Source of the DNA: Burkholderiales bacterium
Lineage (GTDB): Bacteria > Pseudomonadota > Gammaproteobacteria > Burkholderiales > Burkholderiaceae_C
Reading direction: 5' to 3'
Assembly (NCBI GenBank): GCA_003963075.1
Contig: RXJV01000034.1
Span: 1 to 42,460 of the forward strand
DNA length: 42,460 nt
Notes under the pieces: generated by a model
Told to the model about the DNA's origin: nothing
Databases searched by the model: none
The model's input: the letters and a program-made list of their open reading frames with translations, nothing else
Program-made: the position numbers and the translations under genes
Part shown: piece by piece, positions 9,503 to 31,840 of the stretch
Layout: each line of letters starts with the position of its first letter
How positions within the stretch are numbered: the first letter of the stretch is position 1

Positions 9503-9518
9503 GGGGTGGGTCAGTGGT

Positions 9519-10739: not shown

Positions 10740-10743
10740 GTGT

Positions 10744-11733: not shown

Positions 11734-11778
11734 GGCGCTGTTCCGAGGGTTGGGACGTGGATGATGGGTGGAGGCTGT

Positions 11779-12939: not shown

Positions 12940-13073
12940 GTCGTTCGAAGTTCCAGGGTTGTGCCCTTGAGACGGGGCTTTGTAGGGGTCAGGGGGATTG
13001 TGTGGTTCGCGGAATGGTTTGACAATCAGGCCAATGTTTAACACTACGTCAAATACCGTTTGACAGTCGATCC
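12940..13073. promoter_or_regulatory. Divergent promoter/operator region with LysR-type palindrome
   Basis: The spacer between the module A operon and lysR contains GTCAAATACCGTTTGAC at 13048-13064, a perfect 6-bp inverted repeat with a 5-bp centre. A further TTTGAC occurs at 13018-13023, giving three related half-sites. A consensus-like TTGACA at 13019-13024 could be a -35 box for lysR, though no good -10 follows. Position and symmetry suit a LysR-type binding site; function is inferred. Confidence 0.6.
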
Positions 13074-15572: not shown

Positions 15573-16526
15573 TCAGAGCGTCCTGGCGAGTTCGGGCACT
15601 GCCTCGAAGAGGTCGGCCTCCAGGCCGTAATCGGCGACGCTGAAGATCGGCGCCTCCGGATCCTTGTTGATCGCGACGATGACCTTGCTGTCCTTCATGC
15701 CGGCGAGGTGTTGGATCGCGCCACTGATGCCAGCAGCGATGTACAGCTGCGGCGCGACGATCTTGCCCGTCTGCCCGACCTGCCAGTCGTTGGGGGCGTA
15801 GCCGGCATCCACCGCCGCGCGACTGGCACCCAGCGCAGCGCCGAGCTTGTCCGCCAGGGGGGTCAACACCTCGTTGAACTTGTCGCTCGACCCCAGCGCG
15901 CGGCCGCCGCTGACGACGATCTTCGCGGCCGTCAGCTCGGGCCGGTCGAGCTTGGCGATCTCGCTGCCGACGAAGCGGCTGCGGCTGCCGTCGGCCACCG
16001 CCGCGATGGTCTCGACCGCCGCGTTGCCGCCGCTGCCCGGTGCGGGGTCGAAGCCGGTCGTCCGCACGGTAACGACCTTGATCGCATCCGCACTCTTCAC
16101 GGTGGCGATGGCATTGCCAGCGTAGATCGACCGCTCGAAGGTGTCCGGGGCGATCACCCGGGTCGCATCGCTGATCTGCGCGACATCGAGCAGCGCGGCA
16201 ACGCGTGGCGCCACGTTCTTGCCGTGTGTCGTGGCCGGGAACAGGATGTGGCTGTAGCCCGGCGCCACCGCCAGCACCTGCGCGGCGACGGTCTCCGCCA
16301 GCTGCGCGGCGAGGCTCTCGCCATCGGCCAGCAGCACCCGGGCAACGCCGTCGATCTGCGCCGCCGCCCGGGCGGCGCCGGCGGCCTCGTGGCCGGCGAC
16401 GAGCACATGCACCGCGGCGCCTTCACCGGCACAGGCCAGCGCTGCGGTGACGGTGTTTAGGGTCGCGCCCTTGACCGCGGCGTGGTCGTGTTCGGCCACG
16501 ACGAGGATTCTTCCGGGTATGGACAT
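15573..16526 (-). CDS. etfA: Electron transfer flavoprotein alpha subunit (module B)
   Basis: The 317-residue ETF alpha subunit carries the FAD-domain signature [15 protein letters not shown], then [31 protein letters not shown] and [16 protein letters not shown]. It is a few residues longer than the module A copy because of short insertions in the N-terminal half, which is the more diverged part. The start lies 2 bp after the etfB stop, indicating translational coupling. It is the final gene of the 14-gene operon and would hand electrons from adipyl-CoA dehydrogenase to the quinone pool through ETF:ubiquinone oxidoreductase encoded elsewhere. Confidence 0.96.
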
Positions 16527-16528
16527 GG

Positions 16529-17278
16529 TCAGATCACCTTCTCTTCGTTCTTCAGCCGGGCCACGAGAGCCGCCACATCGGGCACCTTGATGCCGGCGCT
16601 GCGCCTGGCCGGCTCTGCGACCTTCAGCGTCTGGATGCGCGGCGCCACGTCCACGCCCAGCTCGGCCGACCCGACGACGACCAGCGGCTTCTTCTTGGCC
16701 TTCATGATGTTGGGCAGCGTCACATAGCGCGGCTCGTTCAGGCGCAGGTCGGCGGTGACGACGGCCGGCAGCAACAGCGCCAGCGTCTCAAGGCCGCCGT
16801 CGACCTCGCGCGTGACGGTGACCGTCTCGCCCACCACGATGACCTTGCTGGCGAAGGTGGCCTGCGGCCAGCCCAGCAGCGCGGCCAGCATCTGACCGGT
16901 CTGGTTGCAGTCGTCGTCGATGGCCTGCTTGCCCAGGATCACCAGGCGCGGCTGCTCCCGCTCGACCAGACGTTGCAGCAACTTGGCCACCGCCAGCGGC
17001 TCCAGTTCCTCGGCCGTCTCGACCAAGATGCCGCGGTCGGCGCCGATCGCCGTGGCCGTGCGCAGGGTGTCCTGGCAGGGCATGACACCGCAGGAGACGG
17101 CGATGATCTCGGTCGCCACGCCCCTCTCCTTCAGCCGGACGGCCTCTTCGACGGCGATCTCGTCGAAGGGGTTCATGCTCATCTTCACGTTGGCGATGTC
17201 CATGCCGGTGCCGTCGCTCTTGACGCGCACCTTGACGTTGTAGTCGACCACCCGCTTCACTGGGACCAGCACCTTCAT
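16529..17278 (-). CDS. etfB: Electron transfer flavoprotein beta subunit (module B)
   Basis: This is a 249-residue ETF beta subunit, the same length as its module A paralogue. Shared landmarks are [52 protein letters not shown] and [20 protein letters not shown]. The start at 17278 follows AAGGAGCAAGAG, a good ribosome-binding site; a longer frame to 17323 overlaps the thiolase end. Third positions look more G/C-rich than in the module A copy, so the two modules probably had separate histories rather than arising by recent duplication. Confidence 0.97.
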
Positions 17279-17297
17279 CTCTTGCTCCTTGATCTGA

Positions 17298-18512
<1,215 letters not shown>

Positions 18513-18563
18513 GGAAGATCCGTGAAAGGGGTTGCAATGAGTCGCGCAGATCCGTCGCGCGGA

Positions 18564-20618
18564 TCAATCACACAGCAGGGGGCCGAGATCGGCCCGCACC
18601 GCACCGTGGCCGGCCGCTTCGGCCAGGCGCTGCAGGTCGCTGTCCAGCTCGGCCCGGTCCTGCTGCCTCGCCCAGAACACCGGCCCGCCTTCCCACCGCG
18701 GGAAGCCGTAGCCCTGCACCAGCACGACGTCCACGTCGCTGGCACGCGCGGCCACGCCTTCGGCGACCAGCAGCGCGGCCTCGTTGACCATCGCCAGCAG
18801 CGCCCGGCGCTGGATCTCCGCGGGTGGCAGGGCTCTCCGCACGATGCCGCACCGTGCGCTGGCGCGCTCGATGATTTCGCGCACCGTCGCATCGCTCGTG
18901 CGCGTCTGCTTGCCGCCCGGGTACGCGTAGTAGCCGGCACCGGTCTTGCGCCCGAGCCGGCCCTGCTCGCACAGCTGGTCCAGGATGTCGACGTAGCGCT
19001 CGCGCGGGTCACGTGTCGCGGCCTGGCTCTTGCGCATGCGCCAGGCGATGTCCAGGCCCGACAGATCGGCCACCGCGAACGGCCCCATCGCAAAGCCGAA
19101 GCCGGTGAGCGCGTCGTCCACCTGCTCGGGCCAGACGCCGTCCTCGAGCATGAACTCGCACTGGCGGCGGTAGGCGTTGTAGATGCGGTTGCCGATGAAG
19201 CCGAAGGCGTTGCCGGTGAGCACCGGCCGCTTCTCCAGCACCGCGGCGACGGCCATAGCCGTGGCCAGCACCTCGGGCGTGGTGCGCGCGCCGCGCACCA
19301 CCTCGACGAGCTTCATCACGTTCGCCGGGCTGAAGAAGTGCAGGCCCACCACGTCCTGCGGGCGCGCGGTGGCCGCGGCGATGGCATCGACGTCGAGGTA
19401 GGAGGTGTTCGTGGCCAGCACGGCGCCAGGCCGGGCGTGGGCGTCGATGCGGCCGAACACCGCCTGCTTGACGGACAGGTCCTCGAACACGGCCTCGATC
19501 ACCAGGTCGGCTTCGGCCAGGCGCGCCCAGTCCAGCGTGGCCGACAGCCGCGCCTCGTGGGCCGCCGCCACCTTCGCCGGCAGCTTGCCCGCGGTGACGC
19601 GGCCCCGGTAGTGGGCGGCAACGCGCTCGAGGCCGCGCTCCAGCGCGCTGCCGTCCTGCTCCAGCAGCAGCACCCGCAGCCCGGCGTCTAGCGCGGCGAT
19701 GGCGATGCCCGAACCCATGGTGCCGGCGCCGATGACGGCCACGCAGCGCACCGCGCGCGGCGCGGCCTGCAGTTCAGCCGGCAACTTGGCCGACGCGCGC
19801 TCGGCCTGAAACTGGTAGCGCAGCGCCCGCGCCGCTGTCGTCGGCAGCAGCGCCAGGAAGAGCTCTCGCTCGCGCTGCAGGCCATGGTCGAAGGGCAGCG
19901 CCGAAGCCGCCAGCGCGTCCAGCAAGGCCGCGTGCGCTGGCTGCAGCTTCTGACGCGCGTCGAGCCTGGCGCGCTGGCCGTCGACGAAGGCGTGCACCGG
20001 CGCCGCGTCGAGCATGCGGTCGCGCGCGCGCGGGAACGGCGGCCCGGCCTTGGCCAGCTGCGCGGCGAGCGCCGCGGCCGCCGCCACCGCCCCGTCGTCG
20101 ACCATGCGGTCGAAGAGGCCGCTGTCCTGCAGCTGCTGCGCCGTCCGCGGCTGGCCGCTGGCCATCAGGGCATGGGCGGCGGCCAGGCCGATCAGCCGCG
20201 GCAGCCGCTGGGTACCGCCCGAGCCGGGGATCAGGCCCAGCGTGATCTCGGGTAGGCCCACGCGTGCGCCGGCCTGCGCCACGCGGGCGTGACAGGCCAG
20301 CGCCAGCTCCAAGCCGCCGCCGAGCGCCACGCCGTCGATGGCTGCGACCACCGGCTTGGGGCAGGTCTCGACCCGTTCGAGCACGGTGCGCAAGATAGGC
20401 TCCTGCAGCTGGCGCGGCGTGCCGAACTCGGTGAAGTCGGCGCCGGCCGAGAAGGCCTTGTCGCTGCCGGCAAGCACGATGCCGCGCACGGCGGGGTCGG
20501 CCTGCGCGGCGTCGAGCTGCTGCACGATGCGCGCACGCAGCGCGTGGCCCATGCTGTTGACGGGCGGCTGGTCCAGCGTGATGACGGCGATGCCGTCTTG
20601 GAGATCGCTGGCTGCCAT
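18564..20618 (-). CDS. Enoyl-CoA hydratase / 3-hydroxyacyl-CoA dehydrogenase fusion (module B)
   Basis: The 684-residue FadB/FadJ-type fusion parallels the module A enzyme. The crotonase domain shows FSAGADFTEFG, GVALGGGLELALACH and PEITLGLIPGSGGTQRLPRL. The NAD-binding site is VIGAGTMGSGIAIAALDAG, the catalytic His lies in GLHFFSPANVMKLVEVV, and the C-terminal dehydrogenase domains contain GNAFGFIGNRIYNAYRRQCEFMLE (split here only for description). The gene starts 2 bp after the acyl-CoA dehydrogenase stop, so the two are probably translationally coupled. A long open frame on the opposite strand is a composition artefact of this G+C-rich gene. Confidence 0.94.
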   Translation of the reverse strand: MAASDLQDGIAVITLDQPPVNSMGHALRARIVQQLDAAQADPAVRGIVLAGSDKAFSAGADFTEFGTPRQLQEPILRTVLERVETCPKPVVAAIDGVALGGGLELALACHARVAQAGARVGLPEITLGLIPGSGGTQRLPRLIGLAAAHALMASGQPRTAQQLQDSGLFDRMVDDGAVAAAAALAAQLAKAGPPFPRARDRMLDAAPVHAFVDGQRARLDARQKLQPAHAALLDALAASALPFDHGLQRERELFLALLPTTAARALRYQFQAERASAKLPAELQAAPRAVRCVAVIGAGTMGSGIAIAALDAGLRVLLLEQDGSALERGLERVAAHYRGRVTAGKLPAKVAAAHEARLSATLDWARLAEADLVIEAVFEDLSVKQAVFGRIDAHARPGAVLATNTSYLDVDAIAAATARPQDVVGLHFFSPANVMKLVEVVRGARTTPEVLATAMAVAAVLEKRPVLTGNAFGFIGNRIYNAYRRQCEFMLEDGVWPEQVDDALTGFGFAMGPFAVADLSGLDIAWRMRKSQAATRDPRERYVDILDQLCEQGRLGRKTGAGYYAYPGGKQTRTSDATVREIIERASARCGIVRRALPPAEIQRRALLAMVNEAALLVAEGVAARASDVDVVLVQGYGFPRWEGGPVFWARQQDRAELDSDLQRLAEAAGHGAVRADLGPLLCD

Positions 20619-20620
20619 GC

Positions 20621-21778
20621 TCAGGCCTTCATCAGCTGCTTGCCGATCAGCAGCTGCTGGATCTGCGAGGTGCCCTCGTACAGGCGCAGCAGCCGCACGT
20701 CGCGGTAAAAGCGCTCGACCTTGTACTCGTTGATATAGCCGGCGCCGCCGTGGATCTGCACGCCGCGGTCGGCCACGCGGCCGACCATCTCTGTCGTGAA
20801 CAGCTTGGCGCAGCTGGCCTGCATGCTGACCTCGGGGTCGCTCACGCCGAAGGCCTTGGCGTCGTAGCGCCGGGCCACCGCGCGCATCAGCGACAGGCCG
20901 GCCAGCAGCTCGGCCTGGCTGTCGGCCAGCATCGCCTGCACAAGCTGGAAGTCGCCGATACGCTGGCCGAACTGCCTGCGCTGCTGCGCGTAGGCCACGC
21001 TCTCCTGGATGATGCGGTACGCCATGCCGCAGGCCAGCGCCGACAGGTGCAGGCGCCCGCGGTCGAGCACCTTCATCGCCGTCTTGAAGCCCCGGCCCGG
21101 CTCGCCGCCGATCAGGTTGGCGGCCGGCACACGCACGTTGTCGAGGTTGACGTCGCAGGTCTTGGTGCCGCGCTGGCCCATCTTCTTGTCAGGCTTGCCG
21201 AGCGACAGGCCGGGCAAGCCGGCCGGCACGATGAAGGCCGAGATGCCGCCGGCGCCGGGCCCGTCGGTGCGTGCCATCAGCGTGAAGGCGCCGGCGCGCG
21301 GCGCGTTGGTGATGTAGCGCTTGCTGCCGCTGAGCAGGTAGTCGCTGCCTTCCAGCACGCCCTTGGTCTTCAGCGACGCGGCGTCGCTGCCCGCGTCGGG
21401 CTCGGTCAGCGCGAAGGACACGATCAGCTCGCCGCTGGCGATGCGCGGCAGGTACTCGGCCTTCTGCGCCGCCGTGCCGTCCATCAGGATGCCCTGCGAG
21501 CCAATACCGATGTTGGTGCCCGCCACCGATCGGAAGGCCAGCGCCGTGTGCCCGAGCAGGTAGACCACCTCGCACTCTTGCGCCATGCTCAGGCCGATGC
21601 CACCGTACTCCTCGGGAATCGACAGGCCGAACAAGCCCAGTTCCTTCATGTCGGCGACGATGTCGTCGGGCACGGCGTCGTGCTCCTCGACGGTGTCCTC
21701 GGCGGGCATCAGGCGCTCGCGGACGAAGCGCTCGACGCTGTCCTTGAGCAGTTCGAAAGTTTCGGGGTCCAACGACAT
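20621..21778 (-). CDS. Acyl-CoA dehydrogenase, probably adipyl-CoA acting (module B)
   Basis: This 385-residue FAD enzyme is closely similar to the module A acyl-CoA dehydrogenase. FALTEPDAGSDAASLK, GQRGTKTCDVNLDNVRVP, RRQFGQRIGDFQLVQ, VQIHGGAGYINEYKVERFYRD and LYEGTSQIQ mark the FAD- and substrate-binding elements. It follows the CoA-transferase here, whereas in module A it leads the operon, so gene order around the shared core has been rearranged. It should convert adipyl-CoA to 2,3-didehydroadipyl-CoA with ETF as acceptor; substrate is inferred from the ChnB-E genes in the same operon. Confidence 0.94.
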   Translation of the reverse strand: MSLDPETFELLKDSVERFVRERLMPAEDTVEEHDAVPDDIVADMKELGLFGLSIPEEYGGIGLSMAQECEVVYLLGHTALAFRSVAGTNIGIGSQGILMDGTAAQKAEYLPRIASGELIVSFALTEPDAGSDAASLKTKGVLEGSDYLLSGSKRYITNAPRAGAFTLMARTDGPGAGGISAFIVPAGLPGLSLGKPDKKMGQRGTKTCDVNLDNVRVPAANLIGGEPGRGFKTAMKVLDRGRLHLSALACGMAYRIIQESVAYAQQRRQFGQRIGDFQLVQAMLADSQAELLAGLSLMRAVARRYDAKAFGVSDPEVSMQASCAKLFTTEMVGRVADRGVQIHGGAGYINEYKVERFYRDVRLLRLYEGTSQIQQLLIGKQLMKA

Positions 21779-21802
21779 CGGGGCTTCCTTGAGGTTCGGT
21801 GT

Positions 21803-23023
21803 TCAGATGACATGGCGGCAGCGCAGGTCCTGCAGTTCGGCGGACGACAGGCCGGCCAGCGCGCCCAGCACCGCGTCGGTGTGTTCGCCCAGCAGCGGCG
21901 GCGGCAGGCGGTACTCGACCGGCGTGCTGCCCAGCTTCAGCGCGCTGGCCGGCAGGCTGACCTGCCCGGCGGTGGGATGCGCCATGTCCAGCCGCAGGCC
22001 GCGCGCGACGACCTGCGGGTCGGCGAAGACGTCGGCCAGGTCGTTGATCGGGCCGCAGGGCACGCCCGCGGCTTCCAGCGCCGCCAGCCACTGCGCGCGG
22101 GTCTGGCGCAGCATCAACGGCTCGAGCAGCGGCACCAGCGTGTCGCGGTGGCGCACGCGCTGCGGGTTGGTGGCGAAGCGTTCGTCGTCGGCCAGCGCGG
22201 GCGCACCGGCGGCCTCTAGCAGCTTGCGGAACTGGCCGTCGTTGCCGCAGGCCACGATCACCCAGCCATCCGCCACCTTGAACACCTGGTAGGGCACGAT
22301 GTTCGGATGGGCATTGCCCCAGCGCCTGGGCGGCTGGTCGGTGGCGAGGTAGTTCGTCGCCATGTTGGCCATCATGGCCACCTGCACGTCGAGCAGGCAG
22401 ATGTCGAGGTGCTGGCCCTCGCCGCTGCGGTCGCGGTGCGCCAGCGCGGCCAGGATGGCGATGGTGGCGTGGGCGCCGGTGAAGAGGTCGGCAATCGCCA
22501 CGCCAGCCTTCTGCGGCCCGCCGCCGGGCAGCGCGTCGCGCTCGCCCGTCACGCTCATGAAGCCGCCCATGCCCTGCACGATGAAGTCGTAGCCGGGCCG
22601 GGGCGCGTAGGGGCCGGTCTGCCCGAAGCCGGTGATCGAGCAGTAGACGAGGTCCGGCTTGACGGCGCGCAGGCTCTCGAAGTCCAACCCGTAGCGCGCG
22701 AGCTGGCCGACCTTGTAGTTCTCGACCAGCACGTCGCACTGCGCCACGAGCTGGCGCACCAACGCCTGCCCCTGCGGCGTGGCGATGTCCAGCGTCACCG
22801 ACTGCTTGTTGCGGTTCACCGCCAGGTAGTAGGCCGCCTCGCTGGTGGGCTGGCCCTCGGCGTCCTTCGCATAGGGCGGGCCCCACTGGCGCGTGTCGTC
22901 GCCGGCGCCGGGCCGCTCGATCTTGATGACCTCGGCGCCCAGGTCGGCCAGGGTCTGCGTGCACCACGGGCCGGCGAGCACGCGGGTCAGGTCCAGCACG
23001 CGCAAATGGCTCAGGGCTCCCAT
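21803..23023 (-). CDS. CaiB/BaiF family CoA-transferase (module B)
   Basis: This 406-residue class III CoA-transferase is collinear with the module A copy. It has MGALSHLRVLDLTRVLAGPW, GAEVIKIERPGAGDDTRQWG, NRNKQSVTLDIATPQG and the candidate catalytic Asp in VAIADLFTGAHATIAILAAL. It lies directly after the ChnE-type aldehyde dehydrogenase, which makes adipate, and before the acyl-CoA dehydrogenase. It is therefore the best candidate for converting adipate to adipyl-CoA, probably with succinyl-CoA as donor. No separate acyl-CoA ligase is present in the operon. Confidence 0.94.
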   Translation of the reverse strand: MGALSHLRVLDLTRVLAGPWCTQTLADLGAEVIKIERPGAGDDTRQWGPPYAKDAEGQPTSEAAYYLAVNRNKQSVTLDIATPQGQALVRQLVAQCDVLVENYKVGQLARYGLDFESLRAVKPDLVYCSITGFGQTGPYAPRPGYDFIVQGMGGFMSVTGERDALPGGGPQKAGVAIADLFTGAHATIAILAALAHRDRSGEGQHLDICLLDVQVAMMANMATNYLATDQPPRRWGNAHPNIVPYQVFKVADGWVIVACGNDGQFRKLLEAAGAPALADDERFATNPQRVRHRDTLVPLLEPLMLRQTRAQWLAALEAAGVPCGPINDLADVFADPQVVARGLRLDMAHPTAGQVSLPASALKLGSTPVEYRLPPPLLGEHTDAVLGALAGLSSAELQDLRCRHVI

Positions 23024-23045
23024 GTCGCTGACCGTCGGTCCGCGT

Positions 23046-24476
23046 TCAGTTCAGCTGCGAGACGAACTTGGTCGTCAGGTAGCCGTCGAAGGTCTCGCTG
23101 CCGCCTTCGCTGCCGTAGCCGCTTTCCTTGATGCCGCCGAAGGGGGTCTCGGCCAGTGCCAGGCCGATGTGGTTGATCGAGACCATGCCCGCCTCCAGCC
23201 CACGCGAGATCTGGTGCGCGTTCTTCAGCGACGTGGTGAAGGCGTAAGAGGCCAGCCCGAAGGGCAGGCTGTTGGCGCGTACCAGCACCTCGTCCACCGA
23301 CTTGAACCGCACCAATCCGGCGATGGGGCCGAACGGTTCCTCGGTCATGAAGCGCGAGTCGTCCGGCAGGCCGGCCAGCACCGTCGGCGCGAAGAAGTTG
23401 CCGTCGCCGGCAAGCCGCCGGCCGCCGGTCAGCACCTGGCCGCCGCGCTGCCGGGTGTCTTCGACGAAGCCCTCCATCGCCGCCACGCGGCGGCGCTGCG
23501 CCAGCGGACCCATGCGCGTGGTCTCGTCCAGGCCGTCGCCCACCTTCAGGGCTTCGACGTGGCCGACGAATCGGTCGACGAAGCGGGCGTAGGCACCGTC
23601 CTGCACGTAGAAGCGCGTCGGCGAGATGCACACCTGACCGGCGTTGCGGAACTTGAAGCCGGCCAGCACCTTGGCGGCCTGATCGATGTCGGCGTCGTCG
23701 CAGACGATCACCGGCGCGTGGCCGCCCAGTTCCATCGTGCAGCGCTTCATCATCGAGCCGGCCAGCGCCGCCAGCTGCTGCCCCACCGGTGTCGATCCGG
23801 TGAAGGAGATCTTGCGCACGATGGGCGAGCGGATCAGGTGGTCCGAGATCATCCCCGAGTCGCCCGAGACCACGTTCAGCACGCCCGACGGCAGGCCGGC
23901 GTCGTGCAGGACCTCGGCGATACCCAGCACCGAGGCCGGCGTGTCGCTCGAGCCCTTGAGGATGCAAGTGCAGCCCGCACCGATGGCCGCCACCACCTTG
24001 CGGAAGGCCTGGCTGAAGGGGAAGTTCCACGGCGAGAAGGCCACGCACACGCCGACGGGCTCGCGCAGCACGGTCTGCTGCACGCGACCATCGCGCGGCG
24101 GGATCAGGCGGCCATAGATGCGCCGCGCCTCTTCGCCATGCCACTCGGCGTGCTCGGCACAGCTCATTACCTCGCCCACGGCTTCGGCGAGCGGCTTGCC
24201 CTGCTCCAGCGTCAAGTTGCGCGCGATGGCTGGCGTGCGTTCGCGGATCAGCGCGGCGGCCTTTCGCAGAACCTGGGAACGCTCCAGCGCCGAGACCGTG
24301 CGCCAAGCCGCGAAGGCGCGCTGCGAAGAGGCCAGCGCGGCGTCGAGGTCGTCGAGCGCGGCATGCGGCAGCTGGCCGATGACCTCGTTGGTGGCCGGGT
24401 TCAGCACGGGCTGGGTATGGCGGTCGCCGGCGAGCAGCCGCTGGCCGTCGATGTAGAGGTGGAGTTCGGGGTACAT
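23046..24476 (-). CDS. chnE: 6-oxohexanoate dehydrogenase (ChnE-type aldehyde dehydrogenase)
   Basis: This 476-residue NAD(P)-dependent aldehyde dehydrogenase would oxidise 6-oxohexanoate to adipate. It matches the Acinetobacter ChnE protein as I remember it, for example CAEHAEWHGEEARRIYGR, AFSPWNFPFSQA and the end FDGYLTTKFVSQLN. Catalytic residues are in place: Glu249 in MELGGHAP and Cys283 in NAGQVCISPTRF; the cofactor site includes FTGSTPVGQ. The ATG at 24476, with AAGGA upstream, was preferred to one six codons earlier. It lies between the ChnD-type dehydrogenase and the CoA-transferase, in pathway order. A succinate-semialdehyde dehydrogenase role is a less likely alternative. Confidence 0.92.
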   Translation of the reverse strand: MYPELHLYIDGQRLLAGDRHTQPVLNPATNEVIGQLPHAALDDLDAALASSQRAFAAWRTVSALERSQVLRKAAALIRERTPAIARNLTLEQGKPLAEAVGEVMSCAEHAEWHGEEARRIYGRLIPPRDGRVQQTVLREPVGVCVAFSPWNFPFSQAFRKVVAAIGAGCTCILKGSSDTPASVLGIAEVLHDAGLPSGVLNVVSGDSGMISDHLIRSPIVRKISFTGSTPVGQQLAALAGSMMKRCTMELGGHAPVIVCDDADIDQAAKVLAGFKFRNAGQVCISPTRFYVQDGAYARFVDRFVGHVEALKVGDGLDETTRMGPLAQRRRVAAMEGFVEDTRQRGGQVLTGGRRLAGDGNFFAPTVLAGLPDDSRFMTEEPFGPIAGLVRFKSVDEVLVRANSLPFGLASYAFTTSLKNAHQISRGLEAGMVSINHIGLALAETPFGGIKESGYGSEGGSETFDGYLTTKFVSQLN

Positions 24477-24505
24477 GGCAGGTCCTTCAGGCATTCGGAG
24501 TGTGG

Positions 24506-25558: not shown

Positions 25559-25632
25559 GGTGTGTCTCTCCTTCGATGCATCGTGTTTCTGGTTCAATGG
25601 CGCGCAGCGACCTGGGCTGGCTGCCAGGCCGG

Positions 25633-26523
25633 TCAGAACAGCGTCAGCAGGCGCAGGTTGAACTGGTTGTTCACCTTGAAGCCCTCGCGCGCCTTGATGT
25701 CGCGGCCGTAGGTCGCGAGCAGCTGCGTGGTGGGTGCCACGAACCAGCCGGCACCGACGTTGAACTTCGTCGTCGCCTGGCGGTTGTCCTGGTCCACGCC
25801 GCCGAGCTTGGTCTCGCCGCCGAAGGTGTGGAACAGGCCGCCGCGCAGATCCAGCGTCGGGCTGAGCTGGTAGCGCAGGTGCGTCTGCAACGCGAACAGC
25901 GGCTTCTGCTTCAGCGTGGTCGCCCCGCCCGCGCCGTTGTTCGCGTCGTCGTTCTTGCCGAAGAAGGTGACGTCTGCAGCCAGGTCCAGGTTCACGCCCG
26001 CCGCCAGCTCGTGGATGCTGCCGGCCTGCAGCGCGAACTTGTAGCGGTTCTCGCCCAGGCTCAGCGGGTCGTTGCGGTCGTACTTGCCGGTGGGAAGCCA
26101 CAGGTAGGGCGTCACCGCAAAGTGCGTCTTCGCGCCGGGCTTCGTGAACCAGATCGCCGACGCCAGGATGAGGTCGCCGACGCCGCTCGAGGACCCCAGC
26201 CCGGCGGTGTCGTCCTTGCCCTTGAGTCGCCCGAAGGGCAGCAGGAACTGCGGGTCGATGATGAGGCCGCCGACTTCCATGAAGCGCACGCCGCGCAGGA
26301 TGCCGATGTCCGAATCCAGTCCCGGCTTGATCGGCACCTGGTTGCCTTTGCTGTACAGCTTGTCGCGCGTGGCGTGCTGGCCATAGACGACGAGCGCATT
26401 GGTGCCGGCAGGCAGGGCGGTGTAGTCGCCCGCGTCGAGGTCGATGGCGTGGGCCGGCGCCATCAGCGCCAGTGATGTCACGGTGGCTGCGACGGCAGCG
26501 AGGGGCTTGAAGGCTTTAGTCAT
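25633..26523 (-). CDS. Outer-membrane transporter-like protein (COG4313/MetA-like)
   Basis: The 296-residue exported protein has an N-terminal signal peptide (basic MTKAFK, hydrophobic stretch, cleavage after APAHA at about residue 26). The mature protein has repeated amphipathic strands such as TKFNVGAGWFVAPTTQLLATYG and ends with an aromatic residue (LRLLTLF), typical of outer-membrane beta barrels. It resembles the transporter family often encoded in aromatic and alicyclic catabolic clusters (COG4313, phenol meta-pathway type). A role in uptake of a hydrophobic ring substrate such as cyclohexanone is inferred. The start at 26523 was chosen because it gives the signal peptide; the frame remains open further upstream. 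Confidence 0.82.
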   Translation of the reverse strand: MTKAFKPLAAVAATVTSLALMAPAHAIDLDAGDYTALPAGTNALVVYGQHATRDKLYSKGNQVPIKPGLDSDIGILRGVRFMEVGGLIIDPQFLLPFGRLKGKDDTAGLGSSSGVGDLILASAIWFTKPGAKTHFAVTPYLWLPTGKYDRNDPLSLGENRYKFALQAGSIHELAAGVNLDLAADVTFFGKNDDANNGAGGATTLKQKPLFALQTHLRYQLSPTLDLRGGLFHTFGGETKLGGVDQDNRQATTKFNVGAGWFVAPTTQLLATYGRDIKAREGFKVNNQFNLRLLTLF

Positions 26524-26582
26524 GCTCTTGTCTCCAGGTTGGTTGTTGACGGGTTGGGAACTCGTTTCGATCGGGTCGGGGC

Positions 26583-27653
26583 TCATGTGGAGCCCTTCGC
26601 CAGCCAGGCATCCAGTGCGGGCCATAGCCGCTTGACGGCGTTGCCCCCGGCCACGAGGCTGGCGTGGCCGCCCTTCAGCACGATCTCCTGCTTGCGCCGG
26701 GAGCCGATGGCCGCGACCAGCGGTTGCGATGCGCCGTGGGGCACGATGTGGTCGTGGGCAGCCAGGGCGTGGAGCACCGGCCGCTGGATGGCGCGGAGAT
26801 CGACCCGCCGGCCGCCGACGAGCAGCTCGCCGCAGGCCAGCCGGTTCTCGCGGAACAGGTCCTGCACCAGCTGCCGGAACAACGCGCCCGGCAGCGGCAG
26901 CACGTCGCGCGACCAGCGGTCCAGCCGCCGGTGGCCCTCGACGAAGGCGTCGTCCCACAGCTTGTCCCAGAGCTGCAGCTTGGCCGCAGGGCCGGTCGCG
27001 GGGCGCAGCAGGTCGAAGGCGCCGTAGATCACTTCGGGTGGCACGTTGCCCGTGGTGTCGACGAGACGGTCGAGATCGAAGTGGCGCGCGTCGGTCCAGT
27101 GCCTGAACAGCGTCATCTCATGGAAGTCGACGGGGGTCGCGATCAGGGCCAGCTGCTTCATCGGGCCGTCAGGGTGCAGGGCCGCGTGCAGCGTCACCAG
27201 CAGTCCACCCATGCAGTACCCAAGCACGTTGACTTCCGCCTCGCCCGAGATCTCCTGCACGCGGCGCAGGGCCTCCGGCAGGAAGTCGAACACGTAGTCC
27301 TCCAGCCGAAGGCGCTGCTCGTCCGGGCGGGGCGCGTTCCAGTCGACCATGTAGACGTCGTAGCCCCGTTCGAGCAGGTGCTGCACGAAGCTGTGCCCGG
27401 GTGCGAGGTCGAAGACGCTTCCGCGGTTGGTGAGCGCCGCGACGATGAGCAGCGGCACGCGGTAGATCTCGTCCGCACACGGGCGGTAGTGGTACAGCGC
27501 CAGCGTGCCGCGCTGAACGACCAGGTCGCGCGGCGTCGGGCCCAGCATCGGTTCCGGCGCCGTCAGCACGCCCAAAGCCTTGGCTTGGCGTTGCAGCGCG
27601 CGCGCCAGCTCGGTCTGCAGGCTGTCGGCGATGGGCGCGATCTTCCCGGTCAT
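26583..27653 (-). CDS. phaC: Polyhydroxyalkanoate synthase, class III PhaC-like
   Basis: The 356-residue alpha/beta-hydrolase-fold polyester synthase would polymerise hydroxyacyl-CoA. The lipase-like box has the PHA-synthase cysteine (GYCMGG, Cys147), followed by Asp301 in AAHDHIVP and His330 in KGGHASLV, completing the triad. The short length (class I enzymes are near 590 residues) and ...VYMVDWNAPRPDEQ... fit class III PhaC, which works with a PhaE subunit. The gene overlaps the upstream small gene by ATGA, so the two are coupled. Location inside a cyclohexanone operon is unusual. Possible substrates are 3-hydroxyacyl-CoA species or an omega-hydroxy acid CoA ester; the sequence does not decide. 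Confidence 0.9.
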   Translation of the reverse strand: MTGKIAPIADSLQTELARALQRQAKALGVLTAPEPMLGPTPRDLVVQRGTLALYHYRPCADEIYRVPLLIVAALTNRGSVFDLAPGHSFVQHLLERGYDVYMVDWNAPRPDEQRLRLEDYVFDFLPEALRRVQEISGEAEVNVLGYCMGGLLVTLHAALHPDGPMKQLALIATPVDFHEMTLFRHWTDARHFDLDRLVDTTGNVPPEVIYGAFDLLRPATGPAAKLQLWDKLWDDAFVEGHRRLDRWSRDVLPLPGALFRQLVQDLFRENRLACGELLVGGRRVDLRAIQRPVLHALAAHDHIVPHGASQPLVAAIGSRRKQEIVLKGGHASLVAGGNAVKRLWPALDAWLAKGST

Positions 27654-28054
27654 GCTCGCCCCTTCCGCGTCGCGTCACGCGGCGCCGCGGGCGGCTTGCG
27701 CGTGCGTGGCGGCATCGCGCGCGCGGACACCGCCGGCAGCGTGCCGGCGATCTGGGCCAGCGTCGCCTGCAGGCCGATCAGCCGGTCCTCGACGGCCTGC
27801 AGGCGACCCGACAGCGCCTCGATGTCGCCGCGCGTCGGCAGGTTCAGGACCGCGAGCGTGCGGCCCGACACCTGCTGCCCGAGCGCCTGGCCGGCCATCG
27901 AGGCGGCCAGGACCTGGTTCAGCGCCTGCGCGAACGCGTCGGACTGCATGCCGGACGCGGCGAGCGCGTTCAGGCCCTGCTCCATCCGCGCGACGACGTC
28001 GCGCGACAGCGCGAACGGGTCGAACAACGGGTCGAAGGACTGCGGCTCGGCCAT
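27650..28054 (-). CDS. PHA-synthase-associated protein (PhaE/phasin-like)
   Basis: The 134-residue protein has an amphipathic helical body rich in Ala, Gln and Leu (residues 15-70), the segment LNLPTRGDIEALSGRLQAVE near residues 72-91, a predicted coiled-coil helix, and a basic Pro/Arg/Lys tail. The LPTR-D-x-E/D-x-L motif is shared by PhaE subunits and PhaF-type granule proteins. It is coupled to phaC by a 4-bp ATGA overlap, so a role as synthase partner or granule-surface protein is likely. It is much shorter than a typical PhaE. The start at 28054 gives a conventional N-terminus, MAEPQSFDPLF; longer open frames upstream overlap the hydrolase gene. Confidence 0.75.
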   Translation of the reverse strand: MAEPQSFDPLFDPFALSRDVVARMEQGLNALAASGMQSDAFAQALNQVLAASMAGQALGQQVSGRTLAVLNLPTRGDIEALSGRLQAVEDRLIGLQATLAQIAGTLPAVSARAMPPRTRKPPAAPRDATRKGRA

Positions 28055-28062
28055 GGCTGCGC

Positions 28063-28959
28063 TCAGACCGCGTGCGCGGCGATGTCGTCCGCGATGCGAG
28101 GCCACAGGGTCACCGGCAGCGCGTGGCCCATCTCGTCGATGACGGACAGCCTCGCGCCGGGCACGCTGCGCGCGATGTCCACGCCACAGGGCAGCGGAAT
28201 CAAGGGGTCGAGCGCCCCGTGGATCACCAGCGTCGGCACACGCACCGAGGCCAGCTGCGCCTTGCGGCTGCCCGACGCCAGGATCGCCGCCAACTGCCGA
28301 GCGATGCCCGGCGGATTCACGCCACGTGCGTGCAGGCGGGCCGCGCGCTCGGCGTCCAGGGCGTCGTCGAGCGGAAAGTTCCCGGCGCGCAGCACCTTCC
28401 ACACGCGCAGGTAGCGCCGGATGTAGGCCTCGCGCTCGGTCGGCGTCGGCGTGAGCAGCGCCGCGGTCGCCTCCATCGTCGGCCGGGGCAGCCCCGGCGC
28501 ACCGCTGGACGACATGATGGTCGTCAAGCTGCGCAACCGTGCCGGATGAAGGATGGCGACCAGCTGCGCGATCGCCCCACCCATCGATGCGCCGACGATA
28601 TGCGCCTGCTCGATGTCGAGCGCGTCGAGCAGGCCCACCGTGTCGGCTGCCATGTCGTCGAGCAGGTAAGGCGCGCTGATCGGCAGGCCCAGCGTCGCAC
28701 GCGCGATCAGCGCCCGGCCGTCGGGGGCGCCGGCGTGGTCGAACTTCGTCGACAGGCCGATGTCGCGGTTGTCGAAGCGGATCACCCGGTAGCCGCGTGC
28801 GGCCAGCAGCGCACAGAACGCGTCGTCCCAGGCCAGCATCTGGCAGGCCAGGCCCATGACCAGCAGTAGCGGCGGCGCCTTCGGGTCACCGAAGGCGTCG
28901 TAGACCAGTTCGATGCCGTTCGCCTTGGCGACGGCCGGCGCTGTATAGGGGGCGTTCAT
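28063..28959 (-). CDS. Alpha/beta-fold hydrolase
   Basis: The 298-residue hydrolase of the esterase/lactonase-type alpha/beta fold has its nucleophile Ser125 in VGASMGG, acid Asp251 in HGALDPLIP and His279 in DEMGHALP, with the oxyanion segment VMGLACQ near residue 35. The substrate is unknown. It may hydrolyse a lactone, an ester or polyester, being placed between the cyclohexanone monooxygenase and the PHA synthase genes. It is unrelated in subfamily to the HSL-type ChnC at the head of the operon, so two different hydrolases are available. The start at 28959 (MNAPYT) or two codons upstream at 28965 are equally plausible. Confidence 0.88.
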   Translation of the reverse strand: MNAPYTAPAVAKANGIELVYDAFGDPKAPPLLLVMGLACQMLAWDDAFCALLAARGYRVIRFDNRDIGLSTKFDHAGAPDGRALIARATLGLPISAPYLLDDMAADTVGLLDALDIEQAHIVGASMGGAIAQLVAILHPARLRSLTTIMSSSGAPGLPRPTMEATAALLTPTPTEREAYIRRYLRVWKVLRAGNFPLDDALDAERAARLHARGVNPPGIARQLAAILASGSRKAQLASVRVPTLVIHGALDPLIPLPCGVDIARSVPGARLSVIDEMGHALPVTLWPRIADDIAAHAV

Positions 28960-29057
28960 GCGCATGGCGATGGCATGGCGAAGCGGCGCGGCGCGGGAGG
29001 CCCGTGCACGCGCAGCCCGCCCGGCGTACCGGGCGGACAGGCCGCAACACCTTGGCT

Positions 29058-30653
29058 TCAGTTCAGGGCAAAGCCCTCGTAGCCCTTGCTCTTGACCGCG
29101 TCGAGCTGCTGCCGGTAGGCGCCGATGCCGGCCATGTAGAACATCACGGTGTTCTTCTTGCCTGGGATGTTGGCGCCGAAGATCCACGAGTCCACCTTCG
29201 GGAACAGCGTCATGTGGGCGATGTCGTCGCAGGTCTTGGTCCAGGACTGCTCGGCCTCGCGCGTCGGCTCGATCGTCGAAACCTTCGAGCGTTCGGCATG
29301 GCCGATCGCCTCACCGATCCACTCCACCTGGGCCTCGATGCTCGGTGGCAGGTTGGTGAACGGGCCGTTGGGGCCGAGGATCATGAACATGTTCGGGAAG
29401 CCGTGCGTCGACAGCCCCAGGTAGCTGGTCGGGCCGTCGGCCCAGTATTCGTTGATGTGCCGGCCACCGCGCCCGCGCAGGTCCATCGAGCGGTAGTTCC
29501 CGTCCACCGCGTCGAAGCCGGTGGCGAAGACCAGCACGTCGAGTTCGTGCTCCACGCCGTCGGCGGTCAGCACGCCCCTGGGCGTGATGCGCTCGATCGG
29601 CGTCTCCTTGATCGACACCAGGCTGACGTTGTCGCGGTTGAAGGTCTCGTAGTAGCCCTCGTTGCACAGCGGACGCTTGGCGTACAGGCCGCTGGGCGTG
29701 AGCTTGCGCGCGGTCTCCGGGTCCTTGACGATCTCCTTAATCTTCTTGCGGATGAAGGCCGCCGCCGCCTCGTTGGCCTCCGCATTGGTGGCGATGTCGC
29801 AGAAGGTGCCGAACATGAAGCGGAAGCCGTTGCCCTTGTCCCAGTTCTCCTGGAAGATGCGGTCGCGTTCGGCGTCGGTGACCTTCATCGCCTCGACGCC
29901 GCTTTCCTGGAAGCCGAAGGCGACGACCGAGTTGCGCACCTGGTTCCAGATGGCGTCGAAGTTCTTCTTCGTCTCCACCACCTCGGCCTGACCGACCGGG
30001 CCGTTGCCCGAGGGCACGCAGTACTGCGGCGAGCGCTGGAACACCGTCAAGTGGCTGGCCATCTTGGCGGCCTGGACGATGAACTGCGTGCCGGTCGAGC
30101 CGGTGCCGATGACGCCGACGCGCTGGCCCGTGATGTCCAGGTCCTGCGGCCAGGCGTTGGTGTGCACCATGCGGCCTTCGAAGCTGTCACGGCCCGGAAT
30201 GTCGGGGATATTGCTCTTGGCCAGCAGGCCCAGTGCCGTCACGAGGTAGCGGCAGCTGTAGGTCTCGCCGGTGTTCGTGCGCACGGACCAGCGCTTGCCC
30301 GCTTCGTCGAACACCGCACTCGTCACCTCGGTGTTCAGCTGGATGTCGCGGCGCAGGTCATGGCGGTCGACGACGTGGTTGAGGTACTTCTCGATGTCGC
30401 GTTGCTCCAGGTAGCGGGTGTTCCAGTCCCACTCCTGCAGCAGGTCCTTGTCGAAGGAGTAGCGGTAGACGAAGCCCTCAGTGTCGGACTTGGCGCCTGG
30501 GTAGCGATTGAAGTACCAGGTGCCGCCGACGCCGCCGCCCTTCTCGAGGGCGCGTGTCTTCAGCCCAAGTTCGTTGCGCAGCTTGTGCAGCATGTAGATG
30601 CCGCCGAAGCCGCTGCCGATGACGATGGCGTCGAAGCTCTGTTCATTGCTCAT
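29058..30653 (-). CDS. chnB: Cyclohexanone monooxygenase (Baeyer-Villiger, ChnB-type)
   Basis: The 531-residue FAD- and NADPH-dependent type I Baeyer-Villiger monooxygenase would insert oxygen into cyclohexanone to give epsilon-caprolactone. It shows the first Rossmann motif GSGFGG (13-18), the family fingerprint FEGRMVHTNAWP (158-169) and the second motif GTGSTG (183-188). Long blocks match Acinetobacter cyclohexanone monooxygenase as I recall it: GFRFMFGTFCDIATN, LYAKRPLC..GYY, FATGFDAVDGNYR, LGPNGPFTNLPPSIEAQVEW and WIFGANIPGKKNTV. Neighbouring chnC, chnD and chnE genes support cyclohexanone over other ketones, though relaxed specificity is common in the family. Confidence 0.95.
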   Translation of the reverse strand: MSNEQSFDAIVIGSGFGGIYMLHKLRNELGLKTRALEKGGGVGGTWYFNRYPGAKSDTEGFVYRYSFDKDLLQEWDWNTRYLEQRDIEKYLNHVVDRHDLRRDIQLNTEVTSAVFDEAGKRWSVRTNTGETYSCRYLVTALGLLAKSNIPDIPGRDSFEGRMVHTNAWPQDLDITGQRVGVIGTGSTGTQFIVQAAKMASHLTVFQRSPQYCVPSGNGPVGQAEVVETKKNFDAIWNQVRNSVVAFGFQESGVEAMKVTDAERDRIFQENWDKGNGFRFMFGTFCDIATNAEANEAAAAFIRKKIKEIVKDPETARKLTPSGLYAKRPLCNEGYYETFNRDNVSLVSIKETPIERITPRGVLTADGVEHELDVLVFATGFDAVDGNYRSMDLRGRGGRHINEYWADGPTSYLGLSTHGFPNMFMILGPNGPFTNLPPSIEAQVEWIGEAIGHAERSKVSTIEPTREAEQSWTKTCDDIAHMTLFPKVDSWIFGANIPGKKNTVMFYMAGIGAYRQQLDAVKSKGYEGFALN

Positions 30654-30693
30654 GGGATGTCTCCTGTGCGCTGTGTGGGGATGCGGTCAGCGC

Positions 30694-31596
30694 TCAGGCG
30701 CCCTTGAACCACTTGGCGATGCGCCGCAGCTCGTCGTCGGCCTGGGCGGCACGGCCGGCCAGGAAGGGGAAGACGTGTTGCATGCCACCGACCACCGACA
30801 GGGTGACTGACACGCCGGCCGCCTTCGCGATGCGCGCCAGGTCCTGCGCGTTGTCCAGCAGCGTCTCCACTTCGCCGGCATTGACGTACAGGCGCGGGAA
30901 GCCGCGGTAGTCCGCCTTCAAGGGGTTAGCCAGCGGATCGGTGCGCGATCCCTTCTCGCCGAGGAACATGCCCGACATGCCCTGCAGGATGGCCTTGCTG
31001 ACCAGCGCGTCGGAGGCGGCATTGGTCTCCAACGTCTTGCCGACGTGCTCCATGTCGAGCCAGGGCGAGAAGGCGATCACCGCGCCCGGCAGCGCCACGC
31101 CGTCGTCGCGCAGCTTCAGCACGGTGGCGATGGCCAAGTTGCCGCCGGCGGAGTCGCCGCTAGTGGTGATGTCGGCGGGCTTGAAGCCGCGCGACAGCAG
31201 CTCCTTGTAGACAGCCGTCGAATCCTCGAGCTGCGCTGGGAACGGATGCTCCGGGGCACGCCGGTAGTCGATGACCACGGCCGTCACGCCAAGATGCCTG
31301 GCCAGGTGACCCGCGAGCTTGCGGTGGCTCGCCGCCGACCCGACCGCGAAGCCGCCGCCGTGGGTGTAGAGGATGACCTTCTTCGCGTCGGCGCCGACCG
31401 GCAAGGCCCAGAGGGCCTCGACGCCCGCCAGCACGTCCGACTTGTAGGTCACGCCTTCGGGTTCGAGCGTCGGCTGGTGCCATTCGTCGAACAGGCTGCG
31501 CAGGTCGGCGATCGTCAGGTTCGGATTGGCCGCCATGCGGTCCGACCAGGACTGGTACAGCGCGCGCAGGAAATCCGATTGGTCAGTGGTGCCCAT
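30694..31596 (-). CDS. chnC: Epsilon-caprolactone hydrolase (ChnC-type, HSL family)
   Basis: This 300-residue hormone-sensitive-lipase-family hydrolase is expected to open epsilon-caprolactone to 6-hydroxyhexanoate. The oxyanion-hole motif HGGG is at 79-82 and the nucleophile Ser149 in SGDSAGG. A C-terminal GGMQHVFPFL supplies the catalytic His, and VNAGEVETLLDNA the acid region. First gene of the operon, 40 bp before the monooxygenase gene, so the toxic lactone would be removed as it forms. The start at 31596 is preceded by GGAGAC. Other HSL esterase activities remain possible, but context makes ChnC the best call. Confidence 0.9.
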   Translation of the reverse strand: MGTTDQSDFLRALYQSWSDRMAANPNLTIADLRSLFDEWHQPTLEPEGVTYKSDVLAGVEALWALPVGADAKKVILYTHGGGFAVGSAASHRKLAGHLARHLGVTAVVIDYRRAPEHPFPAQLEDSTAVYKELLSRGFKPADITTSGDSAGGNLAIATVLKLRDDGVALPGAVIAFSPWLDMEHVGKTLETNAASDALVSKAILQGMSGMFLGEKGSRTDPLANPLKADYRGFPRLYVNAGEVETLLDNAQDLARIAKAAGVSVTLSVVGGMQHVFPFLAGRAAQADDELRRIAKWFKGA

Positions 31597-31840
31597 GCTT
31601 GTCTCCGTCGGGTGTGGTTTGGGGTAACGGAATGGTCGGCACCGGCGACCGCGCGGTCTTGAACGTCCGGGTCAGGCGTGTTGAAGGAAATGCGCAGCGA
31701 CAGGTCGGGCCGACATGGGTAGAAACCCGCGCCCGCAGGGCAGTGCTACGTCGCAAGCCCAGGCCACCGAAGGCGCAAGGCCTGTCGCGAAACGACAGGC
31801 GGAATCTCTCTGGTAACGGGGACAGGGGGAGCGGCACTCG
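31597..31840 (-). promoter_or_regulatory. Upstream region of the cyclohexanone operon with strong palindrome
   Basis: This is the only sizeable non-coding space ahead of the 14-gene operon, so it should hold the promoter. A perfect inverted repeat GCCTGTCG-CGAAA-CGACAGGC lies at 31780-31800, and a further half-site CGACAGG occurs at 31698-31704. The arrangement suggests a regulator binding site, possibly for the AraC protein of 14598-15539. I could not assign -35/-10 boxes with confidence. Confidence 0.5.

What the first reader, a model, noticed from the sequence alone, without database searches (positions are those of the whole stretch)
15573..31596. A single 14-gene operon encoding cyclohexanone to acetyl-CoA and succinyl-CoA, including ETF
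ChnC-, ChnB-, ChnD- and ChnE-type genes, CoA-transferase, acyl-CoA dehydrogenase, hydratase/dehydrogenase, thiolase and EtfBA genes lie on one strand with small gaps or overlaps (2 bp between several). Classical chn clusters stop at adipate; here the lower pathway and its dedicated electron carrier are joined to the upper pathway, giving a nearly self-contained transferable trait. Function is inferred from family membership; the gene order and spacing are seen directly.
Basis: partly seen in the sequence, partly recalled or inferred. Interest (0 to 1): 0.75.

Follow-up and report, generated by a model that had tools for sequence, protein, structure and literature searches.

The report
Joined cyclohexanone-to-central-metabolism operon on IS1071
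One continuous run of 14 bacterial genes, lying beside a known mobile element, appears to hold nearly everything needed to eat cyclohexanone down to central metabolites, plus an unexpected bioplastic-synthase pair; it is a new arrangement of mostly known parts, and a related bacterium carries decayed remains of two of these genes at the same places.

Summary
Fourteen intact ORFs lie on the minus strand, 31596 to 15573, with gaps of -4 to 92 bp: ChnC-type esterase, CHMO-clade monooxygenase, alpha/beta hydrolase, PhaR/PhaE-like protein, PHA synthase, porin, ChnD- and ChnE-type dehydrogenases, SUGCT-like CoA-transferase, acyl-CoA dehydrogenase, FadJ-like protein, 3-oxoadipyl-CoA thiolase, EtfBA.

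The three closest relatives share the ChnC-BVMO-ADH-AraC skeleton but not the joined lower pathway. Roseateles aquatilis keeps decayed 3' ends of PhaC and EtfA at the matching places (0 of 100 shuffles score as high), so both stood there before the copies split. The 19 other genomes of the genus have no CHMO match at E<=1e-100.

Most likely an AraC-regulated, horizontally acquired operon taking cyclohexanone to acetyl-CoA plus succinyl-CoA. It is not self-contained: no cyclohexanol dehydrogenase was seen in it, and ETF-ubiquinone oxidoreductase lies on another contig. Transcription and substrate specificity are untested.

The parts
31597..31700 (-). Conserved block just upstream of ChnC, candidate promoter/operator; holds two TTCAA-type direct repeats 22 bp apart (about 31685-31655; the first reads TACAA in G938)
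   Evidence: Similarity to L012, L013 and G938 stops 100-118 bp upstream of ChnC; repeats read from the alignment, not tested against chance; function inferred
30694..31596 (-). ChnC-type epsilon-caprolactone hydrolase (alpha/beta hydrolase)
   Evidence: Abhydrolase_3 1.1e-52; 92% and 87% to the genes at the same place in L012 and L013
29058..30653 (-). ChnB-type cyclohexanone monooxygenase (type I BVMO)
   Evidence: About 397 of 525 residues identical to Thermocrispum CHMO 5m0z; motif FEGRMVHTNAWP
28063..28965 (-). alpha/beta hydrolase (abH1); start codon uncertain
   Evidence: Abhydrolase_1 (longer ORF); 62% homologue directly before PhaR-PhaC in L156
27650..28054 (-). PhaR/PhaE-like PHA synthase subunit; overlaps PhaC by 4 bp
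   Evidence: Weak PhaR/PhaE model hits, below cut-offs; 33% to Novosphingobium PhaE; a PhaR-like match precedes PhaC in 7 of 7 fetched loci
26583..27653 (-). Class III/IV-like PHA synthase PhaC
   Evidence: TIGR01836 292.7 bits, cut-off 365.3; Cys in GYCMGG, Asp and His aligned with 5hz2
25633..26523 (-). Outer-membrane porin, Phenol_MetA_deg family
   Evidence: PF13557 1.1e-40; 91% and 80% in L012 and L013
24506..25558 (-). ChnD-type 6-hydroxyhexanoate dehydrogenase (zinc ADH)
   Evidence: ADH_N and ADH_zinc_N; 92/86/83% in L012/L013/G938
23046..24494 (-). ChnE-type 6-oxohexanoate dehydrogenase (ALDH)
   Evidence: Aldedh 5.1e-153; SSADH-like, below cut-offs
21803..23023 (-). Family III CoA-transferase, SUGCT-like, proposed succinyl-CoA:adipate CoA-transferase
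   Evidence: CoA_transf_3 4.4e-133; best solved relatives 4ed9 and 9br6 (succinate-hydroxymethylglutarate CoA-transferase), Asp of GVAIAD conserved
20621..21778 (-). Acyl-CoA dehydrogenase, proposed adipyl-CoA dehydrogenase
   Evidence: Pfam; 86.5% and 87.0% to copies beside pcaF on two plasmids
18564..20618 (-). FadJ/FadB-like enoyl-CoA hydratase/3-hydroxyacyl-CoA dehydrogenase
   Evidence: 3HCDH_N, ECH_1, 3HCDH
17298..18512 (-). 3-oxoadipyl-CoA thiolase (PcaF)
   Evidence: TIGR02430 703 bits over cut-off 597; PRK09050 723.9 over 605
16529..17278 (-). ETF beta subunit
   Evidence: PF01012 1.1e-38
15573..16526 (-). ETF alpha subunit
   Evidence: PF01012 and PF00766
14598..15539 (+). AraC-family regulator, convergent with the operon, 33 bp from EtfA; proposed operon activator
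   Evidence: HTH_18; same convergent place in L012 (90%), L013 (83%) and G938 (75%)
4361..13967 (.). Second adipate/dicarboxylate set: EtfA2, EtfB2, thiolase2, FadJ2, CoAT2, TctC-type binding protein, ACAD2 (all -) and LysR (+)
   Evidence: 84% DNA identity and same order on Piscinibacter plasmid NZ_CP136338 between IS1071 copies
1..3206 (+). IS1071 with 106-nt inverted repeats
   Evidence: 100% identical to the Pseudomonas sp. ADP plasmid copy
42366..42460 (+). First 95 bp of IS1071 again, same orientation, at the contig end

Best explanation
The array is a single AraC-regulated catabolic operon for cyclohexanone or a near relative. The BVMO makes epsilon-caprolactone. The ChnC-type esterase opens it to 6-hydroxyhexanoate. 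The ADH and ALDH oxidise that to adipate. The family III CoA-transferase takes CoA from succinyl-CoA to form adipyl-CoA. ACAD (electrons to EtfBA), the FadJ-like protein and the PcaF thiolase then yield acetyl-CoA and succinyl-CoA; the succinyl-CoA regenerates the CoA donor, so activation needs no ATP. The porin probably aids uptake. The abH1-PhaR-PhaC module is a polyester-storage side branch whose monomer is unknown. The segment was acquired horizontally and lies in an IS1071-bounded unit assembled from at least two pieces. Shown: gene order, families, catalytic motifs, conserved skeleton, IS1071, remains of PhaC and EtfA in Roseateles. Inferred: one transcript, substrate, the C6 specificity of each enzyme, the role of AraC and of the PHA module.
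For: Families and motifs. Skeleton with convergent AraC kept in the three relatives closest by BVMO identity, L012, L013 and G938. Conserved block ending 100-118 bp upstream of ChnC. Remains in Roseateles: PhaC coding sequence alone, score 76, best of 200 shuffles 33; EtfA coding sequence alone, 81 against 31 (first seen). Horizontal acquisition: CHMO at E<=1e-100 in 1 of 20 genomes of the genus, the window's own. The genome's only two close ACAD copies are both in the window; its next best are 35-44% identical. IS1071 at 1-3206 and its first 95 bp at the other end.
Against: No expression data. Gaps of 92, 74, 59 and 51 bp could hold internal promoters. NCBIfam matches for ADH, ALDH, CoA-transferase, ACAD, FadJ and PhaC fall below the curated cut-offs, so C6 specificity rests on context. 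The Roseateles spacer keeps no trace of ACAD, FadJ, thiolase or EtfB (14 of 200 shuffles score as high); only EtfA's former presence is shown. Pandoraea and G938 keep no traces. A second adipate set in the window could carry the flux instead. The PHA module has no place in a simple degradation pathway.
Confidence: 0.75

Rival explanations
1. Two or more transcription units: an inducible upper unit (ChnC to ALDH) and a separately expressed lower unit starting at or after CoAT, so 'one operon' is only gene adjacency.
For: In Roseateles and Pandoraea the beta-oxidation genes form a separate cluster beside a LysR gene; in the window's second set LysR is divergent to ACAD2.
Against: In the window's first set the ADH-ALDH-CoAT-ACAD-FadJ gaps are 11, 22, 24 and 2 bp, with no LysR gene inside; the promoter/terminator scan shows nothing on the operon strand but has little power.
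Confidence: 0.15
2. The natural substrate is another cyclic ketone or lactone (cyclopentanone, a substituted cyclohexanone, a terpene ketone), with the lower genes serving its dicarboxylic product.
For: Type I BVMOs are often promiscuous (recalled); abH1 and PhaC are not needed for plain cyclohexanone.
Against: The BVMO is in the CHMO clade, about 397 of 525 identical to Thermocrispum CHMO; the thiolase passes two 3-oxoadipyl-CoA thiolase cut-offs, which fits a C6 dicarboxylate.
Confidence: 0.2
3. The lower block is a recent tandem duplication of the neighbouring adipate set (4361-12939) that slipped in behind the chn genes.
For: Homologous genes in a similar order on the same strand in one window.
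Against: Copy 1 and copy 2 proteins are only 65-86% identical in 6 of 6 genes; copy 2 is closer to Piscinibacter in 6 of 6 (85-96%); of the loci compared, copy-1 CoAT is closest to Roseateles (89%) and copy-1 FadJ and thiolase to Cupriavidus; a decayed EtfA end at this place is also in Roseateles.
Confidence: 0.04

Closest known systems
Roseateles aquatilis CCUG 48205 chn locus (L012/L142)
   Same: ChnC-BVMO-porin-ADH-ALDH-CoAT with convergent AraC, 89-94% protein identity
   Different: Lacks abH1-PhaR and all but decayed 3' ends of PhaC and EtfA; its ACAD-FadJ-thiolase-ETF-QO genes are a separate opposite-strand cluster about 3.7 kb beyond AraC
Pandoraea eparura LMG 31012 chn locus (L013/L162/L163)
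   Same: ChnC-BVMO-porin-ADH-ALDH with convergent AraC, 80-89%
   Different: Array stops at adipate; CoA-transferase and ACAD-FadJ-EtfB-EtfA lie in separate clusters further along the same contig; no remains found
chn loci of Pseudomonas kurunegalensis and Polaromonas JS666 plasmids (L075, L076)
   Same: esterase-BVMO-ADH core (plus ALDH in P. kurunegalensis)
   Different: Carry an SDR dehydrogenase after the BVMO (ChnA-like by position) and no attached beta-oxidation genes; a partial EtfA-like match lies upstream on the other strand in L075 and a 35% CoA-transferase upstream in L076
IS1071-flanked dicarboxylate cluster, Piscinibacter gummiphilus SBD 7-3 plasmid (L078)
   Same: Counterpart of the window's second adipate set, same order, between two IS1071 copies; also an AraC gene (57%) and a porin (45%)
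   Different: In the 24.4 kb seen, no BVMO or ChnC; the only clearly chn-like DNA is a 234-bp ALDH 3' fragment (82%) beside IS1071
dca adipate pathway of Acinetobacter baylyi (dcaAKIJP named in a passage of PMC12543098)
   Same: CoA activation then beta-oxidation of adipate
   Different: Uses DcaIJ, a two-subunit CoA-transferase, rather than a family III enzyme, and is unlinked to chn genes (both recalled)

Membership tests
Type I BVMO, cyclohexanone monooxygenase clade | BVMO fingerprint FxGxxxHxxxW(P/D) and Rossmann GxGxxG motifs | tested here: met
   FEGRMVHTNAWP at residue 158; GSGFGG at 13 and GTGSTG at 183 (motif definitions recalled)
Type I BVMO, cyclohexanone monooxygenase clade | Closest solved relative is a CHMO | tested here: met
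   Thermocrispum CHMO, 947.7 bits
Type I BVMO, cyclohexanone monooxygenase clade | Activity on cyclohexanone | not testable with these tools
   needs assay
chn (cyclohexanol/cyclohexanone) cluster | ChnB, ChnC, ChnD and ChnE types together | tested here: met
   (definition recalled)
chn (cyclohexanol/cyclohexanone) cluster | ChnA cyclohexanol dehydrogenase | tested here: not met
   No SDR among the 14 ORFs; other ORFs of the window scanned only in part, rest of the genome not searched for it
chn (cyclohexanol/cyclohexanone) cluster | AraC-family regulator | tested here: met
   14598-15539, same place in 3 relatives; not compared with ChnR itself
Adipate beta-oxidation | 3-oxoadipyl-CoA thiolase | tested here: met
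   TIGR02430 over cut-off
Adipate beta-oxidation | Adipate-specific CoA activation | tested here: inconclusive
   Succinate-glutarate CoA-transferase model 512.8 bits, below cut-off 750; Asp kept
PHA synthase class III/IV | Cys-Asp-His triad in a PhaC-like sequence | tested here: met
   Aligned with 5hz2; residue roles recalled
PHA synthase class III/IV | Score above the class III PhaC cut-off | tested here: not met
   292.7 against 365.3: not filed as a confirmed class III enzyme
PHA synthase class III/IV | Second subunit PhaE or PhaR next to PhaC | tested here: inconclusive
   Weak model hits below cut-offs; conserved neighbour in 7 of 7 fetched loci; 33% to an annotated PhaE
IS1071 composite transposon | IS1071 at both ends in full | tested here: inconclusive
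   Full copy at one end, only 95 bp at the other because the contig ends there

The most novel reading that the evidence does not exclude
The abH1-PhaR-PhaC module polymerises the pathway's own intermediate: 6-hydroxyhexanoate, activated by the operon's CoA-transferase, is stored as poly(6-hydroxyhexanoate), chemically polycaprolactone, and released again by abH1. The operon would then be a natural cyclohexanone-to-polycaprolactone storage and degradation system.
Probability: 0.08. Interest if true: 0.85.

Novelty: new variant of a known kind. Interest (0 to 1): 0.5.

Why it matters
It gives a one-piece genetic cassette for growth on an industrial ketone, of use for bioremediation and for upcycling nylon-type monomers. 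The remains in Roseateles let the joining and splitting of an operon be followed at sequence level. The embedded PHA synthase poses a direct, cheap test: does the strain make a polyester from cyclohexanone, and of what monomer?

Tried and rejected
Tandem duplication of the lower set: rejected on identities. Simple recent accretion of these blocks onto a bare chn operon in the window's lineage, my first reading: rejected when the Roseateles spacers showed decayed PhaC and EtfA ends. Remains of ACAD to EtfB in the Roseateles spacer: none detectable (14 of 200 shuffles reach the score). Pandoraea and G938: four spacers tested, no remains (35, 86 and 98 of 100 shuffles reach the score; 117 of 200). 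The PhaC score included 59 bp of spacer before the porin; one search repeated it on the coding sequence alone and it held. A replication or transfer gene for a plasmid: none among the ORFs scanned, but not every ORF was scanned. Host naming by 16S: no match in the draft; a partial rpoB product is 94% identical to R. aquatilis, 85% to a Ramlibacter MAG and 78% to P. eparura (7 of 8 genomes matched). Terminal inverted repeats of the second Tn3-family transposase: no convincing pair. Plasmid search with the right flank: the 15 of 256 records listed show only IS pieces and short matches. Phage search with EtfBA: one unannotated record. Literature: ten searches, some with capped lists; in what was listed I saw no title or abstract start naming a joined chn-adipate operon or a PHA synthase in a chn operon. 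Only two papers were opened. The library lacks most subscription journals, where I expect the classical chn and dca papers to be. Structure prediction and fold search were not used.
Full report
CHECK. The 14 ORFs are present, intact and collinear on the minus strand. In transcription order: ChnC-type esterase 31596-30694, BVMO 30653-29058, alpha/beta hydrolase abH1 28965-28063, PhaR/PhaE-like 28054-27650, PhaC 27653-26583, porin 26523-25633, ADH 25558-24506, ALDH 24494-23046, CoA-transferase 23023-21803, ACAD 21778-20621, FadJ-like 20618-18564, thiolase 18512-17298, EtfB 17278-16529, EtfA 16526-15573. The largest gap is 92 bp. Third-position GC is 0.89-0.96 in the 14 genes and 0.73-0.875 in the second adipate set.

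WHAT THE GENES ARE. The BVMO matches solved cyclohexanone monooxygenases best and is identical at about 397 of 525 positions to the Thermocrispum enzyme. The thiolase passes curated cut-offs for 3-oxoadipyl-CoA thiolase. The CoA-transferase is nearest to a CaiB/BaiF protein (4ed9) and to a succinate-hydroxymethylglutarate CoA-transferase (9br6), with the aspartate of the GVAIAD stretch conserved (that this is the catalytic residue, and that the SUGCT enzyme accepts adipate, is recalled). ADH, ALDH, ACAD and the FadJ-like protein are assigned by family and context; their NCBIfam scores are below curated cut-offs.

(i) abH1-PhaR-PhaC. PhaC keeps the Cys-Asp-His triad against a solved PHB polymerase but scores below the class III cut-off. 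In a sample of 399 family genomes, 11 including the window's own have a relative at E<=1e-70. I fetched 7 of the 10 others: in 7 of 7 a PhaR-like match precedes PhaC; in one (L156) abH1 stands before both, the same trio, with no BVMO or ChnC match in the 19.5 kb; in another (L160) an abH1-like gene (68%) lies about 7 kb upstream. So the trio exists as a separate module. (ii) A convergent AraC gene at 14598-15539, kept at the same place in Roseateles, Pandoraea and G938. (iii) A second adipate set with its own ETF, a TctC-type binding protein and a divergent LysR gene, about 84% identical in DNA and in the same order as a cluster between IS1071 copies on a Piscinibacter plasmid. (iv) IS1071 itself at 1-3206, 100% identical to the Pseudomonas sp. 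ADP plasmid copy, with its first 95 bp at the contig end.

ORIGIN. The CHMO scan of genome contigs gave 63 loci. Ten have a BVMO of at least 68% identity (L012-L020, L073); with G938 (L124, 86%) and G982 (L126, 67%) that is 12 relatives. In 0 of the 12 is a close ACAD-FadJ-thiolase-ETF block attached to the array, and only in L012 is CoAT in it; some flanks are short because contigs end. Weaker same-strand neighbours exist: in L018 an ACAD-like gene (32%) about 4 kb past the ALDH. In L014, L015 and L020 an AraC gene (46-49%) stands upstream instead. Linkage without joining is seen in Roseateles (LysR/ACAD-FadJ-thiolase-ETF-QO, opposite strand, about 3.7 kb past AraC), in Pandoraea (separate CoAT and ACAD-FadJ-EtfBA clusters on the same contig) and, at 31-48% identity and on the opposite strand, in a Dietzia MAG (L019).

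Roseateles holds the key evidence. Between BVMO and porin it keeps a decayed 3' end of PhaC (122 of 178 aligned positions identical, score 76, best of 200 shuffles 33), and between CoAT and AraC a decayed last part of EtfA with a one-base gap (70 of 89 identical, 81 against 31) (first seen). So PhaC and EtfA stood at those places before the two copies separated, and Roseateles lost most of them. No trace of ACAD to EtfB is detectable in that spacer (14 of 200 shuffles), so their loss with EtfA is the simplest reading, not shown. Pandoraea and G938 show no remains, so an older unjoined form is possible.

The host genus has 20 genomes in the collection; only the window's own has a CHMO match at E<=1e-100. 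In the family sample, 3 of 399 including the own one have a match of at least 67% identity (limit E<=1e-150). In an order sample of 399, the best other match is 49% identical; in a class sample of 369, no other genome passes E<=1e-190. These are samples, but the gene is rare around this host and probably came horizontally. Similarity to the Piscinibacter cluster ends at window 14157 and similarity to Roseateles begins at 14486; between them lies the C-terminal part of another AraC gene (ORF 13985-14452), which marks the join of two catabolic pieces. The Piscinibacter unit itself keeps a 234-bp ALDH 3' fragment, 196 of 237 aligned positions identical to the window's ALDH, next to IS1071.

MECHANISM. 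Cyclohexanone to caprolactone to 6-hydroxyhexanoate to 6-oxohexanoate to adipate to adipyl-CoA to 2,3-dehydroadipyl-CoA to 3-hydroxyadipyl-CoA to 3-oxoadipyl-CoA to acetyl-CoA plus succinyl-CoA (pathway chemistry recalled). The CoA donor succinyl-CoA is returned by the last step. Electrons from ACAD go through EtfBA to an ETF-ubiquinone oxidoreductase; the genome's one match to that family is on contig C58. The 100-118 bp upstream of ChnC are conserved in three relatives and hold two TTCAA-type repeats 22 bp apart, a candidate operator not tested against chance.

LITERATURE. Passages of PMC9477822 describe ChnC as a caprolactone hydrolase and report one active on caprolactam. The abstract of PMC12543098 states that dicarboxylate and fatty-acid metabolism are largely distinct and need different beta-oxidation genes, which fits a dedicated set here; passages of it were also seen. 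Seen in listings with the start of the abstract only: PMC4738008 (ChnR/PchnB as a cyclohexanone-responsive expression system) and PMC7039861 (linuron catabolic genes on PromA plasmids, 71 occurrences of IS1071).

VERDICT. A real, well-formed, rare joined operon: a new variant of chn clusters made of known kinds of enzymes, with an unexplained PHA synthase module and sequence remains in a relative that bear on its history.

Noticed in passing
4361-12939: Second, independently derived adipate/dicarboxylate set in the same window, with its own ETF genes and a TctC-type binding protein; 65-86% protein identity to the first set.
   Followed up: yes
13985-14452: C-terminal remnant of an AraC-family gene at the join between the Piscinibacter-like and Roseateles-like segments.
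   Followed up: partly
1-95 and 42366-42460: Perfect 95-bp direct repeat at both contig ends: either a circular molecule of about 42.4 kb or a contig broken at a multi-copy IS1071.
   Followed up: partly
L078 19780-20013: Piscinibacter plasmid keeps a 234-bp 3' fragment of a ChnE-type ALDH (82%) beside IS1071, next to a porin and an AraC gene: a hint that this unit once held chn genes too.
   Followed up: partly
35001-37964: Second Tn3-family transposase (987 aa) in addition to that of IS1071, without recognisable terminal repeats.
   Followed up: partly
32092-34494: Carboxymuconolactone-decarboxylase-like gene overlapping a 4,5-DOPA-type extradiol dioxygenase, beside a fusaric-acid-resistance-like transporter gene.
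   Followed up: no
L073 5380-8811: Nocardioides MAG: PhaC-like (41%) and abH1-like (53%) genes within about 5 kb of a chn locus, a possible second association.
   Followed up: no
OQ572414.1 8165-8766: Record named Pseudomonas phage Y13 holds DNA 79.6% identical to part of the ETF genes; possibly host DNA.
   Followed up: no
3350-3390 and 14171-14211: 41-bp direct repeat (85%) near both ends of the second adipate segment.
   Followed up: no
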